This document shows positions 1 through 12,264 of a stretch of 37,377 bases of DNA, piece by piece (the first letter of the stretch is position 1; each line of letters opens with the position of its first letter). The stretch covers positions 1-37,377 of IMG/VR virus record IMGVR_UViG_3300046516_000145. One strand, given 5' to 3'. The notes beneath the pieces are model-generated. The model did no database searches, was not told the origin of the DNA, and was given only the letters and a program-made list of their open reading frames with translations. The DNA is from a virus. The translations under genes and the position numbers were made by a program.

Positions 1-3000
1 CTGATCATGGAGTGAGAAGCCATCTCATCCAGTTGATCCAGGATATGAGGATTACGTAGAGACCACATATGTAAGAAGGCTGCATGGGTTCCTGGTATAG
101 CTTTTTTAGCTCCTGCTACTCCTAACAGAGTGGTATAAGTAAAGGCATGGACGAAGAACTGTGCAGGAGAGAATAGACCTACCTTAGCATTAAAGACTAG
201 GGAGCGTATAGTTCTGAATGGATCAGTCATATAGGGTATGACTTTCTCAGGGACTAAAGCCCACTTAGATCCGAACTTGCTGTAGACAGAGTCTGCCAAC
301 GATTGAGCAGCTGAATGTAGGAAGGTATCCATCTTACTGGGAGTACCGATGAACTGATCTATCTTTCTCTTATTCCACATCAACTGTTTTTGCATCTCGG
401 GATTAACATTCTTGAAACTTCCGGGACCGGCTTCCATGAATACTCGATAGGGATTGTTATCCGCCTCACGAGCTATGTTATCTTTCAAGTGAGGTTTAGC
501 TTCAGTAGCCCAATGCTCTATGGCAGACATCTTGATGTCATCCATCCATAGACTCTGAGTAGCTCTGTTGACAGCCCTGTTCATCATGGGCAGAGGATCA
601 ACCTTATCTGCAGCAGAGAACTTAAATACAGGATTATGTCTGCTACCTAGATTATCTATGGACTGGAGTTCATGGACATCTCTCTCACCTGTAAATTGAA
701 CTTGACCAATGTTAGCATCTGAATAAGACCTAGTCCCATTCATCACTCTTCCATCGTTAGTATTCTTAAGTAGATCAGGATCTATATCTGTGACCATCTT
801 GTTGTTGGGTACCACATAGACCTTGGCATTCAAGTCCATCTTGGCAGGTTGGTAATTCTTGCCCTTCTGTTCGTAGTAACCATTGAAGTGATCTTCCCAA
901 GACATGTCTGGAATAGTAGTGTGATGTAAGGCACGGGCTTGATCTATTTCATTAGCTCTGATGTGACCCCTGATCTTATTCATGTTATCAGCGAAGTCTT
1001 GACCTACTCCCCGAAGATTAGAAGCAAATAGCGTTCTATCTCCCATGTAGTGCATTATACCGGTAGTCTTATCTAACTTCCACTGAGGCTCTTTAACATA
1101 GTATCCATGAGTATATTCTACGTGACCTGCGCCTCTACGAGGTAAGGAGTTCCATTGAAGCTCTCTCTGTTCGAAACGATCTGTAATTACGTATCTGAAT
1201 GGATCCTGACTTCTAGAATAGCTACTGAGTTCTCCGCGATAAGGATCGAAGATTCTAAATACTTTGACAGTACCTTTGCTGAAAGCTTCAGCCAGGCGTT
1301 TCTCAATATTGGGAGTCAACTTATCTACCACATGTTTACCATCTTTATTGACGATTAGAACTGATGAAGTACCTCTGGTATCAGATGGGAATTCTTTCAT
1401 AGGTGTCATATCTACGAAAGGAGAATAGACTTTATTACCTTCTTTACTGAAGTGAAATATTCTGATGTTCTTGACACCCATTCGATCACGGATCTTATTG
1501 ATCATAATCTGTCGGAATATGCGATCTAATTCATTGATCTGTTTGAAAGCGAAGTAACCTGCTATCTCAGCTTCAGTAGCTGTACGTCCTTTAGATCTGA
1601 TATACCAATCTTGGATATCTTCAGGACCCTTATACCATTTACCTAAGCGCCCTTCATCATCAAGCTCTTGAGTTGCCGTTCTTAATAGATCTTCGAAGTC
1701 TTTGAACGTCTGCTTATTTCTAAAGCCTCGTAGCTTCTGTATATCTGCAGCTTGTTTACGAATGAATGAAGTAAACTCGTTAGGAGCATAAGTAGCTACA
1801 ACACGGTTCAACATCTGATCCTTAGCCATAGTGTCTGCAGGATTACGTAGCAGACCTATGAATGCATTAGCCCAATTATAGGGAGTCTGAGAAGAAGATA
1901 GTTCCAGACCTAAGTTTCTTACGAATGGATCATTCTCATCAATAGGAAGTCTGATAACATACTTATAGAACTTACCTTCTTGTCTAATATCAGGATCTAC
2001 AATGTTATCAAATCCAGCCGATACGACTGCGTGTTTTCTCTCGGCAAAGAGTTCACCTTTAGTGTTGCCCCTATGAAGTTCCATATAGTGAACACCAGTG
2101 AGTTCATCAATATAAGGACCTACTAAATCTAGATTACCGTCCTTATAGGAATTGATGGTAGTTGACATACGATCTACGATACCATCCAATACCTCTTGAG
2201 ATAGCTTCAGTAGTTGAGGACGTCGTTCTGCTTTAGCTATGTTGACTACATCAGTCATCACGAATTCTCTGGCAGACTCATAGCTATTCAATAGACGAGT
2301 CAACAACTCACGAGATACATTACCTCTGCGATTGGCTATACTATACATATCGTCAGTGAGATATGAAGTCAGAGTTTGGAGATCTCTCTCTAGTTTATTA
2401 CCTCGACCTTCTATATCCTGTGCTACAGCTGCGCCTACTTTAGTAGTGGCTACTTTAGGAGTATCTCCTATGCCACGCGCAGCAGCAACTTCAGGAGTCT
2501 CTTTCAGAGCAGAAGACTTAATCAAGTCTACGGCAGCCCTACGAGTAGCATTCCACATAGATACTTTAGCAGCTAGAGCAGGAATCTTAGTTATGCCTGG
2601 TATAGAAGCTACATCAATAGCACCCATGATATTGTTGTAGAACTTATCGGAGTTAGACATTCCTGATACAGCTTGCAGAACTGTAATAGCTTCCTGAGGA
2701 TTATCATGCATTAACTTCTGCATATCGGGAATGAACTTATTTCTGAATTCATCCTCAGACATAGTCCATGCAGTAGCGGCATAGTTCTCTAAGTTCTCTC
2801 CCCATAGTCCTACAGTTCCTGTAGTCTTAAGTTGAGAGTAGAAAGGAACAGCAGACTTGGCGAAGTCTATTACCTTACCTATTGTAGTTTCATCAGACCT
2901 AGTATCCAGAGCATCTTCTAATAGATTCTGAATTTTTCTGCTTCGTGATAGGTATCCTTCAGTCAACTGGAGAGTATGCGCTACAACTTCAGGCGCTTGT

Positions 3001-3410
3001 TCTTGAGCATCTTCCCACTCGGTATGCCTCTTGCCTTCATTTAGATTAGACGCATAGGCATGAGCCCAACCGGTTTCTAACACATAATCAGGATTAGTTT
3101 TGAACTGAGGTTCAGCTAGGATCTCTTGCATTAGGTGAGGTTGATTCCTAATACGATCCAGTCTGTTTGCATTAGTTTGAGCATCTATAGAAGCAGCAGC
3201 ATGTCCTCTAATATTCTTCTCGTCACCACTCAGCATAGCTTGAGTGAGGTCTGCATAGTCCATACCTAATATGGGACCTAAGCCATACTGAGCTTGGAAT
3301 GCACGTGCCGTGGCCAAGGCAGCCGAAGGCAGAGGCTTAGTGGGCGTCAGCGCCACTTCCTGATTGTCTGGCTGTTGGTATGGGGGAGTTAGTGCTACTT
3401 CGTCAACCAG
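1..3410 (-). CDS. Large internal virion / DNA-ejection protein (3' end outside window)
   Basis: An open frame of at least 1136 codons runs off the left edge of the window. It directly follows a gp14-like gene, the place where T7-like phages encode the large inner-core proteins (gp15/gp16) that are ejected with the DNA. I translated it through and found no internal stop. The product is mostly charged and helical, with a hydrophobic patch near the window edge (around FSPAQFFVHAFTYTTLLGV). I saw no clear lytic transglycosylase motif in this part; it could lie beyond the edge. The start is odd. The frame opens just after a TAG and has no ATG until well inside. A GGAGGA at 3415-3420 sits 4 nt before a CTG (3408-3410), whereas GTG 3354-3356 would cut off the first of two EVALTP repeats. 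Role is inferred from position and size. Confidence 0.8.
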   Translation of the reverse strand, partial: MVDEVALTPPYQQPDNQEVALTPTKPLPSAALATARAFQAQYGLGPILGMDYADLTQAMLSGDEKNIRGHAAASIDAQTNANRLDRIRNQPHLMQEILAEPQFKTNPDYVLETGWAHAYASNLNEGKRHTEWEDAQEQAPEVVAHTLQLTEGYLSRSRKIQNLLEDALDTRSDETTIGKVIDFAKSAVPFYSQLKTTGTVGLWGENLENYAATAWTMSEDEFRNKFIPDMQKLMHDNPQEAITVLQAVSGMSNSDKFYNNIMGAIDVASIPGITKIPALAAKVSMWNATRRAAVDLIKSSALKETPEVAAARGIGDTPKVATTKVGAAVAQDIEGRGNKLERDLQTLTSYLTDDMYSIANRRGNVSRELLTRLLNSYESAREFVMTDVVNIAKAERRPQLLKLSQEVLDGIVDRMSTTINSYKDGNLDLVGPYIDELTGVHYMELHRGNTKGELFAERKHAVVSAGFDNIVDPDIRQEGKFYKYVIRLPIDENDPFVRNLGLELSSSQTPYNWANAFIGLLRNPADTMAKDQMLNRVVATYAPNEFTSFIRKQAADIQKLRGFRNKQTFKDFEDLLRTATQELDDEGRLGKWYKGPEDIQDWYIRSKGRTATEAEIAGYFAFKQINELDRIFRQIMINKIRDRMGVKNIRIFHFSKEGNKVYSPFVDMTPMKEFPSDTRGTSSVLIVNKDGKHVVDKLTPNIEKRLAEAFSKGTVKVFRIFDPYRGELSSYSRSQDPFRYVITDRFEQRELQWNSLPRRGAGHVEYTHGYYVKEPQWKLDKTTGIMHYMGDRTLFASNLRGVGQDFADNMNKIRGHIRANEIDQARALHHTTIPDMSWEDHFNGYYEQKGKNYQPAKMDLNAKVYVVPNNKMVTDIDPDLLKNTNDGRVMNGTRSYSDANIGQVQFTGERDVHELQSIDNLGSRHNPVFKFSAADKVDPLPMMNRAVNRATQSLWMDDIKMSAIEHWATEAKPHLKDNIAREADNNPYRVFMEAGPGSFKNVNPEMQKQLMWNKRKIDQFIGTPSKMDTFLHSAAQSLADSVYSKFGSKWALVPEKVIPYMTDPFRTIRSLVFNAKVGLFSPAQFFVHAFTYTTLLGVAGAKKAIPGTHAAFLHMWSLRNPHILDQLDEMASHSMI

Positions 3411-6803: not shown

Positions 6804-7906
6804 CTCCCGAAGTTAGGTAATTCTCTGAAGAACATATCCTTTTCATCTGATACACGTCCTGCGATAGCTTTCCATTTCTGTAGCGCCGTCAACTGTCGTC
6901 CTACCTCTTCTTCAGCTTTAGCGTGAGGCATCTGCTTCTGTTCGAAGAAAACCAGAGCCTTGGCATCATTGAGAAGAATGGGAAACTGTTGAGCATCTAA
7001 GTCAGGTACGAATGTATCCACCATAGTGAAAGTAGGATATATCCATCCCCAGACCATGGTCTTACTGGCCTGTAAAGTAGTATCTTGAGTCTGGTCATAA
7101 GAATCAAATACTACGTAGTAGTTACTCAGAACAGTACAAAATCGAGGTTGTCTATTATTGAAGAACCTGAATTGAAATAGGTTGGTAGTGTTAGTAGCAG
7201 GATCAATTACGGATAGCTGTTGAGTTCCTACGTCCCCTACTTGAGAGTTGAAACTTGCAGTATAATTAATAAACTCATCTATAGGCAAGATCTTTATGTC
7301 TTTGTATCCAGGGACTTGTGTAGGAGATCCTGAGAATATAATCCAACTATTGAATGTACCTACACCTTGAATAGCTGTTACATTCATAATTAAAGTATTA
7401 CCTGAATAACTAGTTATGGTACCCGTCATAAAGTTAGTACCTGATTGAGCCGTTACAGCTTGACCTACTATTGCGGGTAATCCTGCACCTACTGTAAAGG
7501 TCGAAGAACCAGTCGCAATAGTATTGGAAGATGTCGAAGTAGTAGACCAGGATTGCGTATTAACGATATCTGTATTTAAACTATGTGAAAACGATCCGAA
7601 CTGAGATACCTGTGTAGAATCGCTTGGATTAGTATCGAAGTACTTAATCCATTCAATACGCGTACAGCCTTCCGGACGGAACATCAGACAAGGTGTAGTA
7701 GGATCATTAGCAGGGTCTAATTGAAATAGTCTATTATGTTCAGGTAAGTCGTATCTGCCTAACATATTCCAATAAGTCTGTTCTATTGACCTAGCAACCT
7801 GAAGAGACTCTGCAGTATCTGATATGGAATTAACCTCATCAGAGTTCATGGAGGAAAGTATACTCTGCACCATTTGGAGCAGAGTCATCTTCATATTGTC
7901 AGCCAT
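6800..7906 (-). CDS. Tail tubular protein A (adaptor / gatekeeper, T7 gp11-like)
   Basis: This is a 368-aa protein. The N-terminus matches the T7 gp11 family pattern: MTLLQMVQSILSSMNSDEVN (about residues 7-26), then ISDTAESLQVA and a T-Y-W-N-M-L segment. In T7 this protein forms the 12-mer ring that joins the portal to the nozzle. It is longer than T7 gp11 (about 196 aa). A Thr/Ser/Gly-rich insertion at about residues 115-200 interrupts the helical body and looks like an extra beta domain, possibly displayed outside the tube. The ATG overlaps the stop of the holin gene. Confidence 0.87.
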   Translation of the reverse strand: MADNMKMTLLQMVQSILSSMNSDEVNSISDTAESLQVARSIEQTYWNMLGRYDLPEHNRLFQLDPANDPTTPCLMFRPEGCTRIEWIKYFDTNPSDSTQVSQFGSFSHSLNTDIVNTQSWSTTSTSSNTIATGSSTFTVGAGLPAIVGQAVTAQSGTNFMTGTITSYSGNTLIMNVTAIQGVGTFNSWIIFSGSPTQVPGYKDIKILPIDEFINYTASFNSQVGDVGTQQLSVIDPATNTTNLFQFRFFNNRQPRFCTVLSNYYVVFDSYDQTQDTTLQASKTMVWGWIYPTFTMVDTFVPDLDAQQFPILLNDAKALVFFEQKQMPHAKAEEEVGRQLTALQKWKAIAGRVSDEKDMFFRELPNFGR

Positions 7907-8222
7907 TAGTATGCTCGTTTTTAACTACATTAGGAACCGTAATATCTTTGACTATAGCCTCAACAGAGGTATCATTTTTAAGAACATGCTCAGGTATCGA
8001 GATTCTAATCATCGGATCAATAGAAGCTACTGACTCAATCTTAGATGCATCAGTATGTGCGACAAAAGACCATAGCACAGAACCTATAGTGATAATGGCT
8101 ACTGTAATGTCTGTTACAATAGTACTATCACTAAATTCCTTGAATCCTTGAGCTGCTAACCATGCGCATACAGCGGGTACTAAAATACGCAGAGACCCTG
8201 TAAATTGTTCTCTATTGATCAT
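7899..8222 (-). CDS. Putative holin (two-helix phage holin)
   Basis: This 107-aa protein has two hydrophobic segments, residues 13-27 (ILVPAVCAWLAAQGF) and 38-55 (around ITVAIITIGSVLWSFVA). A polar C-terminal tail follows. Size, topology and the conserved-looking WSF after helix 2 fit small phage holins of the Pam3-gp28 kind, which permeabilise the inner membrane and release the endolysin. It lies two genes after the endolysin and starts with an ATGA overlap, so the lysis genes are co-translated. Membrane topology is seen; the lysis role is inferred. Confidence 0.7.
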   Translation of the reverse strand: MINREQFTGSLRILVPAVCAWLAAQGFKEFSDSTIVTDITVAIITIGSVLWSFVAHTDASKIESVASIDPMIRISIPEHVLKNDTSVEAIVKDITVPNVVKNEHTNG

Positions 8223-8425
8223 GCTTTGACCGGAGCTGTCGCCACCGGATGTGCGCGGAATTTATCTATAGAGTTAATAGCTGTGGTCGCCATCAGAGCC
8301 GACAGATGAGGAACTAGATCCGTAGGGATCATGACTCTCTCGAAAGAAGGGAGCTTGCTCACCTCTACAGTTAGAGCCTGATGTAAGTCTGTTGCAACGT
8401 GATTGATTTCTTCCTTAGTGGCCAC
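8219..8425 (-). CDS. Small lysis-cassette protein, function unknown
   Basis: This 68-aa protein lies between the endolysin and the holin. It uses a GTG start at 8425, preceded by a good AAAGGAG RBS at 7-nt spacing and overlapping the end of the endolysin gene. No membrane segment or known motif is visible; the C-terminus is Ala/Pro-rich. Its position suggests a helper of lysis, but nothing in the sequence proves this. Confidence 0.72.
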   Translation of the reverse strand: MATKEEINHVATDLHQALTVEVSKLPSFERVMIPTDLVPHLSALMATTAINSIDKFRAHPVATAPVKA

Positions 8426-9428
8426 TGTGTATCTCCTTTATGCGTTTGAATATAATATCTTGAGATTGCCCCCAATCGTCTGGATGAGGAGCTTCTATGG
8501 GAATTAGACTTAGCTTAGTTCTCTTATTACCTGGTGCTAGAGACCAAGGATAGTGTCCTAAACCTATTGTCTGTATCCATGTAGGATTATAGATGCATAC
8601 TGCTTCAGCTACGTTAGCTGGTACTTGAATGTGTTCTCCCCATTCAGAAGGCTGGAAGCCAAAAAGTAGATCTATGTTATGTTTGGTTGACGCGGCTATT
8701 CGTGGAGCTTCATTAGCACCTAGAGAATCCCCACCTACAATGATCTTAGTATCTGATTTATCAATATCTGCAACGATAGCGTTGATATCGCTCCATTGAT
8801 ATGGACTATTCCTAGTATCTATGCCAATGCCTTTGCAGCGTTCTACCAGTTGTTTCTCCCCACCGGCAGGATCAAAAACAGATCCACCCATACCGAAGGA
8901 TATCCATGCTCTGGTCAGATGTTGTACTACAGGAATAGTCGCAGTAGGTGTAGTTACTTTATGAGCCATCACGATTGATAGAGCTCGTACATGAGCCACT
9001 CGGGTAGTCCAACCTTGTCCAAATCGACGGAAGGTACCTAAGCGCCTCAAGAAGTTGATACGCTCATCACAGATAGCATTAATTGCTTTTACAGGATCTG
9101 TTTTAATTACAGTTGGGAACTCGCCCAGAATTCGTTTAGCTCGGCCAATTCCAGAGTTAACTCCATAATCAAATACACAATAATCAATCCCACTAGGAAG
9201 TAGATCGCATCCCACAGCATCCCAATACTTACTCTTGTAAATTGTTTTGGCTTGGTCAAGGGTCATTCTCCTCACATCTTGGGCAGTACCGTGAGCATTA
9301 ATATAACTCCTATAATCATTGATAGTGATACCGAAATTAGTAGGTCCACCAGGATCTCCTGGATCATTAGAATAGCCCCCCTCTGACTTGAGTACTTCAG
9401 TTAAAGCCTGCTCGTAATTTTCTTTCAT
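8415..9428 (-). CDS. Endolysin: GH108 muramidase fused to a serine-hydrolase-like domain
   Basis: This is a 337-aa protein. Residues 1-165 are a GH108-type N-acetylmuramidase. The catalytic motif SEGGYSNDPGDPGG starts at residue 15, with E16 the expected acid, followed by NFGIT. The VFDYGVNSG segment belongs to the peptidoglycan-binding part that normally ends such enzymes. Here about 165 further residues follow. They contain VGGDSLGANEA, a GxSxG nucleophile elbow with S235, in an alternating strand/helix pattern that ends with EAPHPDDWGQ, a possible site for the catalytic His. This resembles an alpha/beta hydrolase (esterase, lipase or amidase). The muramidase call is firm; the second activity is inference. 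The gene starts by a TAATG overlap with the tail fibre stop. Confidence 0.9.
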   Translation of the reverse strand: MKENYEQALTEVLKSEGGYSNDPGDPGGPTNFGITINDYRSYINAHGTAQDVRRMTLDQAKTIYKSKYWDAVGCDLLPSGIDYCVFDYGVNSGIGRAKRILGEFPTVIKTDPVKAINAICDERINFLRRLGTFRRFGQGWTTRVAHVRALSIVMAHKVTTPTATIPVVQHLTRAWISFGMGGSVFDPAGGEKQLVERCKGIGIDTRNSPYQWSDINAIVADIDKSDTKIIVGGDSLGANEAPRIAASTKHNIDLLFGFQPSEWGEHIQVPANVAEAVCIYNPTWIQTIGLGHYPWSLAPGNKRTKLSLIPIEAPHPDDWGQSQDIIFKRIKEIHSGH

Positions 9429-11734
9429 TATGAATTTCCTGTTGTTACTGCTGTACCGTTATTAATCACTGTACCACCGGGATTATTGACTCCAATATTT
9501 CCTATTACAGCTCCAGATGAATTTGCAGTTAAGAACATACCCGCAGCACCCGTGAGATTATCAGTCATATGATTACCTACTGCAGATACTTTACAAGCAC
9601 TAAAATAAGCTCCTTCTCCATTAATAGGTGTAGTAGTGTTTCCTATATTATTTTGAATAAATACACAACCGGTGACAGAGGCTCTTAAATTAGTAGGAGA
9701 ACTGGTGTTACCATTTAGTACTAATCCCGTAAACTTATTCTCTTCACATCTGCAACTAGCTAAGTTAATAGTAAGTTTAATTGTAGAGAGAGCAGTAGTA
9801 TCAACAACCATCCCAGAGCCTATGAAATTACCTACTCCTGGATTAGTGTTCTGAGAAAAATTACTCCAGGTATGAGTCATGTTAACATAATACCCAATCG
9901 AAGGCATACCTGATATACTATTATAAAAGAGATTAGTAGCATAATTCCCACAACCGTCCATAATACAATTATTAGCACTGAAACTACAATTGGTTGCTGC
10001 AAAACCGATATTGGTACAACTATTACACTGGACATTTTCCATTACAAAAAAAGTACCTGCCGCCGCATCTCCTACTGCATTAACTCCTATATTACCACCA
10101 CCAATATCTATATCTCGCAGAACAGCATTTAATGCATTAGATCCATTCAAAACAATGGCGTTTCCGACATTATTTATACGGCAATTATTAATTCTATTCC
10201 AATAACCACCAAGACCACTGCCTGAAAAAACAATACCGTTAGAAATGGTAAAGCCCGTACCTTCAATATTGACATTGTCAATTAGAGCAAAACCCATATT
10301 CGAAACGTTATTATCACTGATTGCGTTAGTACAATTTCCAGTTATACCTAAATCTCGAATACAAATTCCACTGCTAGGCGCAGCTAAATTTATTAGGCTG
10401 CCTGCAGCTGCTGATGTGATGACAGTGGCCATAGGACCCATACCACGTAAGGAACAACCAGAGGGTACACTAATGTTGCCTAACGTATATGTAGGAGATA
10501 CTAACCATACAGTGCCACCACCTGAAGAATGCAGAGTAGATAGAGCGTTGTTAATAGAGTTAGTATCGTTAGTTACGTTGCCAGTAGAAGCAACGGTAGT
10601 AAAGCCAGTATTAACGGCATTACTCGTCCAAGTAGGATCAGCACCTGCACCATTAGTAGTGAGATGAAATCCAGCTGTACCTGGAGCTATGGCCGACCAT
10701 GCGCTTGCACCTCGATATAAAACACTGCCTCTGGTAACACTCACAGAATCCATTAGATTGGGAATGAACACATCCGTAGGAATTGCCGTACCACCAGTCA
10801 AATTAGCTTTAGCAGTAAAAGGAGACATAGTGGCTAGATTGGCATTAGCCACACCACCTACAGGAAGATCTGCACCTACTAGAGCTCTATAAGCAGGAGT
10901 AGTCGCAGCACCTGTAGTAGGACCAGCTAAGATAGTATTAGCTGCTTGATTGTTAGCTGTTATAGCTAAGGTGCCTGAAGTAGTAACGGGCGAGCCAGTT
11001 ACCGTCTCATATGCCGGGACAGTCATAGCTACGCTAGTAACTGAACCTGAACCTACTCCTGCACCCGGAGCTACAGTCCAAGTTGGATTAGTACCAGCCC
11101 CGTTGGTAGTAAGTACAAAGCCATTAGTTCCAGGAGGAAGAACATTCCATCCTGCTGTATCCCTATATAAGACATCACCTTTAGTCAGACCTACTGTATC
11201 TAAGACTTGAGATGCAGTTAAGTATGTAGCTGGTTGAGTAGTACCTGCGTTATTGCCTATTACTGAATTAGCAGGAACAGTAGCTAACTTAGAGTTAGCA
11301 ACCACTCCAGTACCAATAGTAGTAGAGGTACCTGCAGAGGTTACATCTCCTACCAGATTTTGGGTAGTTAATGTACCTCCTGAAAAGGATAGCAATCCTG
11401 ATATAGGAACACCTGTACCAGCTGCTGAACCTCCGGTAGGATTACCATACAAATTATTAGCAGGCAAATTGATATTAAGCGCAGAAGAAGCTACCCCTCC
11501 TGATAAGTCTTCTAATCTGACTACATCAGTAGGACTAATAGGGACAGGTAGATTTAATATCCTATTCCCATTCATATCCAGAGCTGAACTCATTGCATTA
11601 GGAGTCTGTCCACTCCTAGATACAGCATCCGATAAGGCTGCGGCAATAGTATTACTATTAATATTAATAGTGTTAGCTGCAGTAGAGGTATCCTGCAGAC
11701 TAGCTACATTATTTAGGGATACATTAATAGCCAT
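9428..11734 (-). CDS. Tail fibre / tailspike with predicted beta-helix
   Basis: This 768-aa protein opens with a short assembly region containing the DMNGNRILNLPVP phrase common in phage fibres (about residues 50-62). Low-complexity Gly/Thr/Ala repeats follow. Two copies of a unit read DVLYRDTAGW...LTTNGAGTNPTW and SVLYRGASAW...LTTNGAGADPTW. From about residue 380 to the end, regularly spaced Asn/Gly turns and short strands suggest a right-handed parallel beta-helix like pectate-lyase-fold tailspikes. It is probably the receptor-binding or capsule-degrading protein. No catalytic residues can be assigned. The very long antisense open frames over this gene come from its biased composition. Confidence 0.85.
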   Translation of the reverse strand: MAINVSLNNVASLQDTSTAANTININSNTIAAALSDAVSRSGQTPNAMSSALDMNGNRILNLPVPISPTDVVRLEDLSGGVASSALNINLPANNLYGNPTGGSAAGTGVPISGLLSFSGGTLTTQNLVGDVTSAGTSTTIGTGVVANSKLATVPANSVIGNNAGTTQPATYLTASQVLDTVGLTKGDVLYRDTAGWNVLPPGTNGFVLTTNGAGTNPTWTVAPGAGVGSGSVTSVAMTVPAYETVTGSPVTTSGTLAITANNQAANTILAGPTTGAATTPAYRALVGADLPVGGVANANLATMSPFTAKANLTGGTAIPTDVFIPNLMDSVSVTRGSVLYRGASAWSAIAPGTAGFHLTTNGAGADPTWTSNAVNTGFTTVASTGNVTNDTNSINNALSTLHSSGGGTVWLVSPTYTLGNISVPSGCSLRGMGPMATVITSAAAGSLINLAAPSSGICIRDLGITGNCTNAISDNNVSNMGFALIDNVNIEGTGFTISNGIVFSGSGLGGYWNRINNCRINNVGNAIVLNGSNALNAVLRDIDIGGGNIGVNAVGDAAAGTFFVMENVQCNSCTNIGFAATNCSFSANNCIMDGCGNYATNLFYNSISGMPSIGYYVNMTHTWSNFSQNTNPGVGNFIGSGMVVDTTALSTIKLTINLASCRCEENKFTGLVLNGNTSSPTNLRASVTGCVFIQNNIGNTTTPINGEGAYFSACKVSAVGNHMTDNLTGAAGMFLTANSSGAVIGNIGVNNPGGTVINNGTAVTTGNS

Positions 11735-12264
11735 TAGAAGTAGACCGTATACGCTTCAGCACCATTAGTGACATTAGTGAAACGAACTGTAACCCACTTA
11801 GAAGTATTGGTAACAACCGTTCTACTTGCTTGGTTGGTATCGAAAGAACCTGAAGCAGGTACAGCTAGAGTAATGGTCGAGCCACCACTATTGATTAGTA
11901 GACAAGATACTTGATCACCAATAACAGCACCGGCTGAAATAGTATTAAGAACTGCAACCATATTGGCAGCTGAATCGAAAGTAGCTGTCAGCGGAGCACC
12001 AGCGTTAATCGTAATAATACCTGTGAGCAAATCACCCATAGATATTGCAACGGCAGAGCTAGTACTTACAGTTCTAGGAGCGCCAAAAGATCCGTAGTTA
12101 TTCTGTCCTAGTTTAGTAGTTTGATATGTAGCAGGAGAACCGACTGTAGCATTTAGAGTAACTGGAAGAAATGTAGCACGAGCGCGCTCATTACCTATAA
12201 TCTCATCTATACCGCTAAAGTCTTCTGATCTTGAAGAGTCAAAGAGACCTGAGTTAGTAGCCAT
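11734..12264 (-). CDS. Small beta-rich virion protein (possible head or fibre decoration)
   Basis: This 176-aa protein is rich in Thr, Ser, Val and Ala and ends in YTVYF. I do not recognise a family. It has an AAAGGAAA RBS and directly precedes the tail fibre, overlapping its start (TAATG). The composition and the location between capsid genes and fibre fit a capsid decoration protein or a fibre partner. Confidence 0.75.
   Translation of the reverse strand: MATNSGLFDSSRSEDFSGIDEIIGNERARATFLPVTLNATVGSPATYQTTKLGQNNYGSFGAPRTVSTSSAVAISMGDLLTGIITINAGAPLTATFDSAANMVAVLNTISAGAVIGDQVSCLLINSGGSTITLAVPASGSFDTNQASRTVVTNTSKWVTVRFTNVTNGAEAYTVYF

What the first reader, a model, noticed from the sequence alone, without database searches (positions are those of the whole stretch)
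8415..9428. Endolysin fused to a serine-hydrolase-like domain
After a complete GH108 muramidase with E16 in SEGGY, about 165 residues carry VGGDSLGANEA (S235 in a GxSxG elbow) and a late HPDDW. A lysozyme joined to an alpha/beta hydrolase would attack the wall and a second target such as lipid, ester or peptide. This is unusual for phage lysins and may reflect a host with a modified envelope.
Basis: partly seen in the sequence, partly recalled or inferred. Interest (0 to 1): 0.65.

Follow-up and report, generated by a model that had tools for sequence, protein, structure and literature searches.

The report
Phage lysozyme fused to a hydrolase
A bacteriophage gene joins a wall-cutting lysozyme to a second enzyme-shaped (alpha/beta hydrolase) domain that other phages keep as a separate gene next to their lysozyme, suggesting a two-step envelope-breaking lysin, although one of the three expected catalytic residues of the second domain has changed.

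Summary
Window 8415-9428 (-) is one 337-residue ORF: residues 1-155 are a GH108 muramidase with E16 conserved, and residues 170-337 are an alpha/beta hydrolase domain. Sequence libraries missed that domain. I found its relatives as a separate gene beside the lysin: next to GH108 in 17 of 21 related viral loci, and beside other wall-lysis genes in two more. A profile built without the query hits only this place in the 37-kb record (E 7.6e-7). AlphaFold2 on the 20-sequence family gives pLDDT 84 and pTM 0.85, and all 50 listed aligned PDB matches are alpha/beta hydrolases (Z up to 15.5). S235 sits at the nucleophile elbow and H315 after the last strand. The acid slot, Asp in all 54 relatives, is Gln (Q259), and the query is a very long branch. 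Fold and fusion are solid; catalysis is open. Exported chromosomal relatives occur in 50 of 397 sampled Rhizobiales genomes and in none of 289 sampled at class level. Best reading: a natural muramidase plus LysB-like envelope hydrolase. Main rival: the hydrolase domain is now non-catalytic. New variant of a known kind.

The parts
8415..9428 (-). fused lysis gene, 337 aa: GH108 muramidase + alpha/beta hydrolase domain
9435..9440 (-). Shine-Dalgarno-like AGGAAA before the ATG at 9428
   Evidence: read from sequence
8964..9428 (-). GH108 muramidase domain, residues 1-155
   Evidence: PF05838 E 1.8e-29; phrog_315 endolysin 3e-42 over residues 1-164; alignment A1
9381..9383 (-). E16, catalytic Glu of SEGGY
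   Evidence: invariant in 15 sequences; catalytic role from knowledge of GH108
8922..8963 (-). Thr/Pro-rich linker, residues 156-169
   Evidence: sequence
8418..8921 (-). alpha/beta hydrolase domain, residues 170-337
   Evidence: AF2 pLDDT 84.2, pTM 0.85; PDB Z up to 15.5; profile hit E 7.6e-7
8724..8726 (-). S235, nucleophile of the GDSLG elbow
   Evidence: invariant in the family; between strand 59-65 and helix 67-78 of the model
8652..8654 (-). Q259, in the slot of the catalytic Asp
   Evidence: Asp in all 54 relatives, Gln only here; directly after strand 85-89 of the model
8484..8486 (-). H315, catalytic His
   Evidence: invariant in A5; in the loop after the last strand 136-141
8219..8425 (-). 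68-aa gene overlapping the end of the lysin gene, no family
7899..8222 (-). holin-like gene, 107 aa (Phage_holin_10, Pam3 gp28 family)
   Evidence: E 9e-6, 26.1 bits, just under the 27-bit cut-off

Best explanation
This is a natural two-domain phage lysin, formed by fusion of two neighbouring lysis genes: a GH108 N-acetylmuramidase and a small (about 168 aa) envelope-acting alpha/beta hydrolase of a family that usually stands as a separate gene beside the lysin. Shown: one ORF, both domains, the family relationship, and S235 and H315 in triad positions. Inferred: the protein has no signal peptide and is released through the downstream holin-like protein. In the periplasm the GH108 half cuts glycan strands, while the hydrolase half cleaves an ester (or related acyl) bond of another envelope layer, in the way LysB does for mycobacteriophages. 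The substrate is unknown. The Asp-to-Gln change at 259 means any hydrolysis would run on a Ser-His pair or with a substitute acid (Glu262 and Glu265 lie in the same loop).
For: GH108 with its catalytic Glu. AF2 model with the canonical strand/helix order and Ser, acid slot and His in the right places. All 50 listed aligned PDB matches are alpha/beta hydrolases: esterases, lipases, thioesterases, cutinases, including minimal lipase LipA at Z 13.2. Homologous stand-alone genes lie next to GH108 on the same strand in 17 of 21 loci found by hydrolase sequence alone, next to a PF11860 muramidase in L143/L184, and next to a PG_binding_1 protein in L133/L176. One homologue carries its own PG_binding_1 domain, E 2.2e-11. 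Signal sequences are seen in L142, L143 and L145 and in most Rhizobiales copies, several with a lipobox. One relative passes the Abhydrolase_6 cut-off.
Against: The family-invariant Asp is Gln in this protein. Its branch is extremely long, 4.5 changes per column against a median of 0.09, as relaxed constraint would give. No activity is known to me for any member. The fusion is known from a single metagenomic record.
Confidence: 0.55

Rival explanations
1. The second domain is a former hydrolase that lost catalysis and now serves as a binding or spacing domain that holds the muramidase at the wall or outer membrane.
For: Asp to Gln at the acid slot, unique among 55 sequences; long branch; the elbow His of GHS is Asp here. 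Close GH108 relatives carry at this place a C-terminal membrane segment, i.e. a non-catalytic tail.
Against: Ser and His, the elbow glycines and the VPANV motif are all kept, which a pure binding domain would not need; the ORF is intact and its codon-position G+C is close to that of the muramidase half.
Confidence: 0.32
2. The domain is a peptidoglycan O-acetylesterase-like helper that removes O-acetyl groups blocking the muramidase, rather than acting on a membrane layer.
For: Fusion and adjacency to muramidases of two families and a PG_binding_1 domain on one homologue fit a wall substrate.
Against: Known O-acetylpeptidoglycan esterases are SGNH/GDSL enzymes (own knowledge); several chromosomal relatives look like lipoproteins, which fits a membrane-facing role as well; no direct evidence on substrate.
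Confidence: 0.1
3. The C-terminal half is an ordinary cell-wall-binding domain and the GxSxG motif is a coincidence.
For: No library family matched it directly.
Against: Profile homology to a hydrolase family and a confident alpha/beta hydrolase model.
Confidence: 0.02

Closest known systems
Mycobacteriophage LysB (mycolyl-arabinogalactan esterase; PMC5707550, PMC8309991, PMC9671378)
   Same: alpha/beta hydrolase with a GxSxG serine, often in the lysis cassette with the endolysin; some LysB proteins have an N-terminal peptidoglycan-binding region, as the homologue in L132/L182 has
   Different: LysB is a separate, larger protein with a full Ser-Asp-His triad that acts on mycolic-acid envelopes; here the domain is about 168 aa, fused to GH108, has Gln for Asp, and its chromosomal kin are in Rhizobiales. 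Sequence kinship to LysB was not shown
Lipase of a Pseudomonas syringae pv. actinidiae phage and the engineered endolysin-lipase chimera ELP-E10 (PMC12173070)
   Same: lipase gene beside holin and endolysin in a Gram-negative phage; the engineered order endolysin-N, lipase-C is the order found here in nature
   Different: that lipase is described as GDSL-like, a different fold; the fusion there is man-made
GH108 endolysins of related phages (L002-L015), Pseudanabaena phage Pam1 and Sinorhizobium phage phiM5
   Same: same muramidase domain, mostly 50-62% identity to the viral-contig relatives, 46% and 41% to the two named phages
   Different: most of the viral-contig relatives end in a C-terminal membrane segment and none has a hydrolase domain
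Exported alpha/beta hydrolases of Rhizobiales chromosomes (50 of 397 genomes)
   Same: same hydrolase family, aligned over the whole domain
   Different: stand-alone, with signal peptide or lipobox, often two per genome; function not known to me

Membership tests
GH108 muramidase (PF05838) | match over the whole model with the catalytic Glu of the EGGY motif | tested here: met
   E 1.8e-29, positions 2-85 of 85; E16 invariant
GH108 muramidase (PF05838) | muramidase activity | not testable with these tools
   needs an assay
alpha/beta hydrolase fold | central sheet with helices in hydrolase order, nucleophile elbow after strand 5 | tested here: met
   model m9473555732e7; 50 of 50 listed PDB rows are alpha/beta hydrolases, best 2qjw_A Z 15.5, rmsd 3.0, 150 aligned
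alpha/beta hydrolase fold | complete Ser-acid-His triad with the acid in the family's usual slot | tested here: not met
   S235 and H315 present, acid slot is Q259; a substitute acid such as E262 or E265 cannot be excluded without coordinates
lysin-adjacent hydrolase family described here | profile homology over the elbow and VPANV region | tested here: met
   33.5 bits to a 54-member profile; E 7.6e-7 in the record with a profile lacking the query
LysB | sequence or structure kinship to D29 LysB (3hc7) | tested here: inconclusive
   not among the PDB rows shown; one weak viral fold match to a Lysin B, E 0.064
LysB | esterase releasing the outer layer from the wall | not testable with these tools
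   needs an assay
GDSL/SGNH lipase | SGNH fold | tested here: not met
   the letters GDSL occur at 233-236, but the model has alpha/beta hydrolase topology with the Ser after strand 59-65

The most novel reading that the evidence does not exclude
A natural one-piece lysin in a Gram-negative phage joins muramidase to a LysB-like hydrolase and so performs wall cutting and outer-layer release with one polypeptide, possibly in place of a spanin, against an envelope feature of Rhizobiales-type hosts.
Probability: 0.25. Interest if true: 0.75.

Novelty: new variant of a known kind. Interest (0 to 1): 0.5.

Why it matters
It points to an uncatalogued family of small envelope hydrolases that travels with phage muramidases (mostly GH108) and has exported chromosomal relatives in Rhizobiales. 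If active, it would be a LysB-like third lysis step outside mycolic-acid bacteria. The natural fusion mirrors the endolysin-lipase order that engineers found most effective (PMC12173070), so it is a ready test of whether joining the two activities helps lysis.

Tried and rejected
Direct searches with the domain alone found nothing: viral and genome contigs, tblastn of phages and plasmids, PDB sequences, NCBIfam, and two hand-made DNA patterns (no hits, then unrelated hits). A search of 397 Rhizobiales genomes with the single sequence gave only chance-level hits. A single-sequence AF2 model was poor (pLDDT 53) and its viral fold search meaningless. Foldseek in PDB mixes in flavodoxins at similar E-values, so I rely on the aligned Z-scores. 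A lipobox scan for spanins was uninformative: 0 of 41 hydrolase loci and 5 of 91 others; none convincing was seen in the window. The tree position is unsure because of the long branch. The idea that GDSLG means a GDSL lipase was rejected on fold. D29 LysB was not among the PDB rows shown, which excludes nothing.

Full report
OBSERVATION. The window is a 37,377-base IMG/VR virus record. The ORF 8415-9428 (-) is 337 aa with an ATG start preceded by AGGAAA. Residues 10-93 match Glyco_hydro_108 over the whole model, E 1.8e-29, and residues 1-164 match a PHROG endolysin family, E 3e-42. E16 is invariant in 15 aligned sequences.

THE DOMAIN WAS INVISIBLE TO DIRECT SEARCH. With the C-terminal 168 residues alone (P0002) I found nothing in phages, plasmids, viral contigs, genomes or PDB sequences, and only weak hints in family libraries: Abhydrolase_11, E 0.18, aligned on the elbow. 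Close GH108 relatives from the same kind of phage (same gene order) mostly end in a membrane segment instead.

FINDING ITS FAMILY. A GH108 profile fetched 80 loci. Among their ORFs, several genes lying directly next to the GH108 gene matched the domain and each other strongly. They carry GHSxGA(D/N) or close variants, VP(A/L)NV and a late His, and one passes the Abhydrolase_6 cut-off (P0003 at 27.7 bits, cut-off 26.3). A profile of eight of them, without the query, found 21 viral loci, 50 of 397 Rhizobiales genomes, and in the window record only 8586-8783 (-), E 7.6e-7. A 54-member profile scores the query 33.5 bits. This is the statistical basis for calling the domain a member of the family.

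CONTEXT OF THE FAMILY. In 17 of the 21 viral loci GH108 is adjacent on the same strand, up- or downstream. In L143/L184 a PF11860 muramidase is adjacent, and in L133/L176 a PG_binding_1 protein. The homologue in L132/L182 has its own PG_binding_1 domain, E 2.2e-11. L142, L143 and L145 begin with hydrophobic signal sequences. Most of the Rhizobiales chromosomal copies begin with signal peptides, several with a lipobox such as LAGCQT. In a class-level sample of 289 genomes none matched, and all 7 matches of the phylum-level sample were genomes already seen in the Rhizobiales draw. No other ORF in the collected loci matches both GH108 and the hydrolase, so the fusion is so far unique.

STRUCTURE. 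With a 20-sequence alignment AlphaFold2 gives pLDDT 84.2, pTM 0.85: strand 3-9, helix 21-31, strand 35-40, helix 46-54, strand 59-65, S66 (= S235), helix 67-78, strand 85-89, Q90 (= Q259), strand 106-111, strand 136-141, H146 (= H315), helix 151-165. This is the alpha/beta hydrolase order. VIA-align gives Z up to 15.5, and all 50 listed entries are alpha/beta hydrolases, including LipA, the minimal lipase, at Z 13.2. The poor single-sequence model already leaned the same way.

THE CATALYTIC PROBLEM. The residue after strand 85-89 is Asp in all 54 relatives (usually followed by Pro) and Gln in the query. The elbow residue before Ser is His in the relatives and Asp here. The tree gives the query an end branch of 4.5 changes per column, against a median of 0.09, on the viral side of a split from the chromosomal copies (98/91 support), but long branches make its exact place unsure. 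So the fold and the Ser/His pair are shown, a complete triad is not, and activity is an open question. Glu262 and Glu265 in the same loop could replace the acid; I had no coordinates to test this.

MECHANISM. Release through the holin-like product of 7899-8222 is inferred from the lack of a signal peptide. GH108 then cuts glycan strands (established for the family). The second domain is inferred to cleave an ester or related bond in the envelope, because its kin are exported, sit with lysins and can carry a wall-binding domain. LysB is the working analogy: an alpha/beta hydrolase of the phage lysis system that separates the outer layer from the wall, with peptidoglycan-binding N-termini in some (PMC5707550, PMC8309991). 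A lipase next to holin and endolysin is also known in a Pseudomonas phage, and an engineered endolysin-lipase fusion works best with the lipase at the C-terminus (PMC12173070).

ASSEMBLY AND EXPRESSION CHECKS. The two halves have the same G+C (0.42 and 0.43) and nearly the same codon-position G+C, unlike the roughly 55-70% G+C of nearly all other phage loci with the homologue, so the domain has probably long been in this genome. Met153 could be an internal start but lacks an upstream Shine-Dalgarno sequence (read).

VERDICT. Observation confirmed; interpretation partly supported. New variant of a known kind: a natural GH108-hydrolase fusion of a lysin-associated family that has no model of its own in the family libraries I searched.

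Noticed in passing
L002, L004, L005, L007, L008, L011, L013, L015 and many of L045-L124: GH108 endolysins of related phages carry a C-terminal hydrophobic (likely transmembrane) segment after the muramidase, an unusual place for a membrane anchor in an endolysin.
   Followed up: partly
L182:3249-4016 (= L132): The same hydrolase domain fused behind a PG_binding_1 domain, next to a GH108 gene: a second architecture of the family, like LysB with a peptidoglycan-binding N-terminus.
   Followed up: partly
L153, L157, L159, L160, L172 (Rhizobiales genomes): Two copies of the hydrolase in tandem, with lipobox-like starts; an uncharacterised exported hydrolase family of Rhizobiales.
   Followed up: partly
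L176:2708-3493: Gene beside the hydrolase L133/L176 with PG_binding_1 and about 190 residues without a Pfam match, possibly an undescribed lysin catalytic domain.
   Followed up: no
window 11734-12264 (-): 176-aa gene between structural genes with a weak match to glycerol-3-phosphate acyltransferase (E 0.0094), likely chance; related ORFs in three relatives.
   Followed up: no
window 3-3356 (-): Large ORF runs off the record's start, so the record is a fragment or is cut inside a gene.
   Followed up: no
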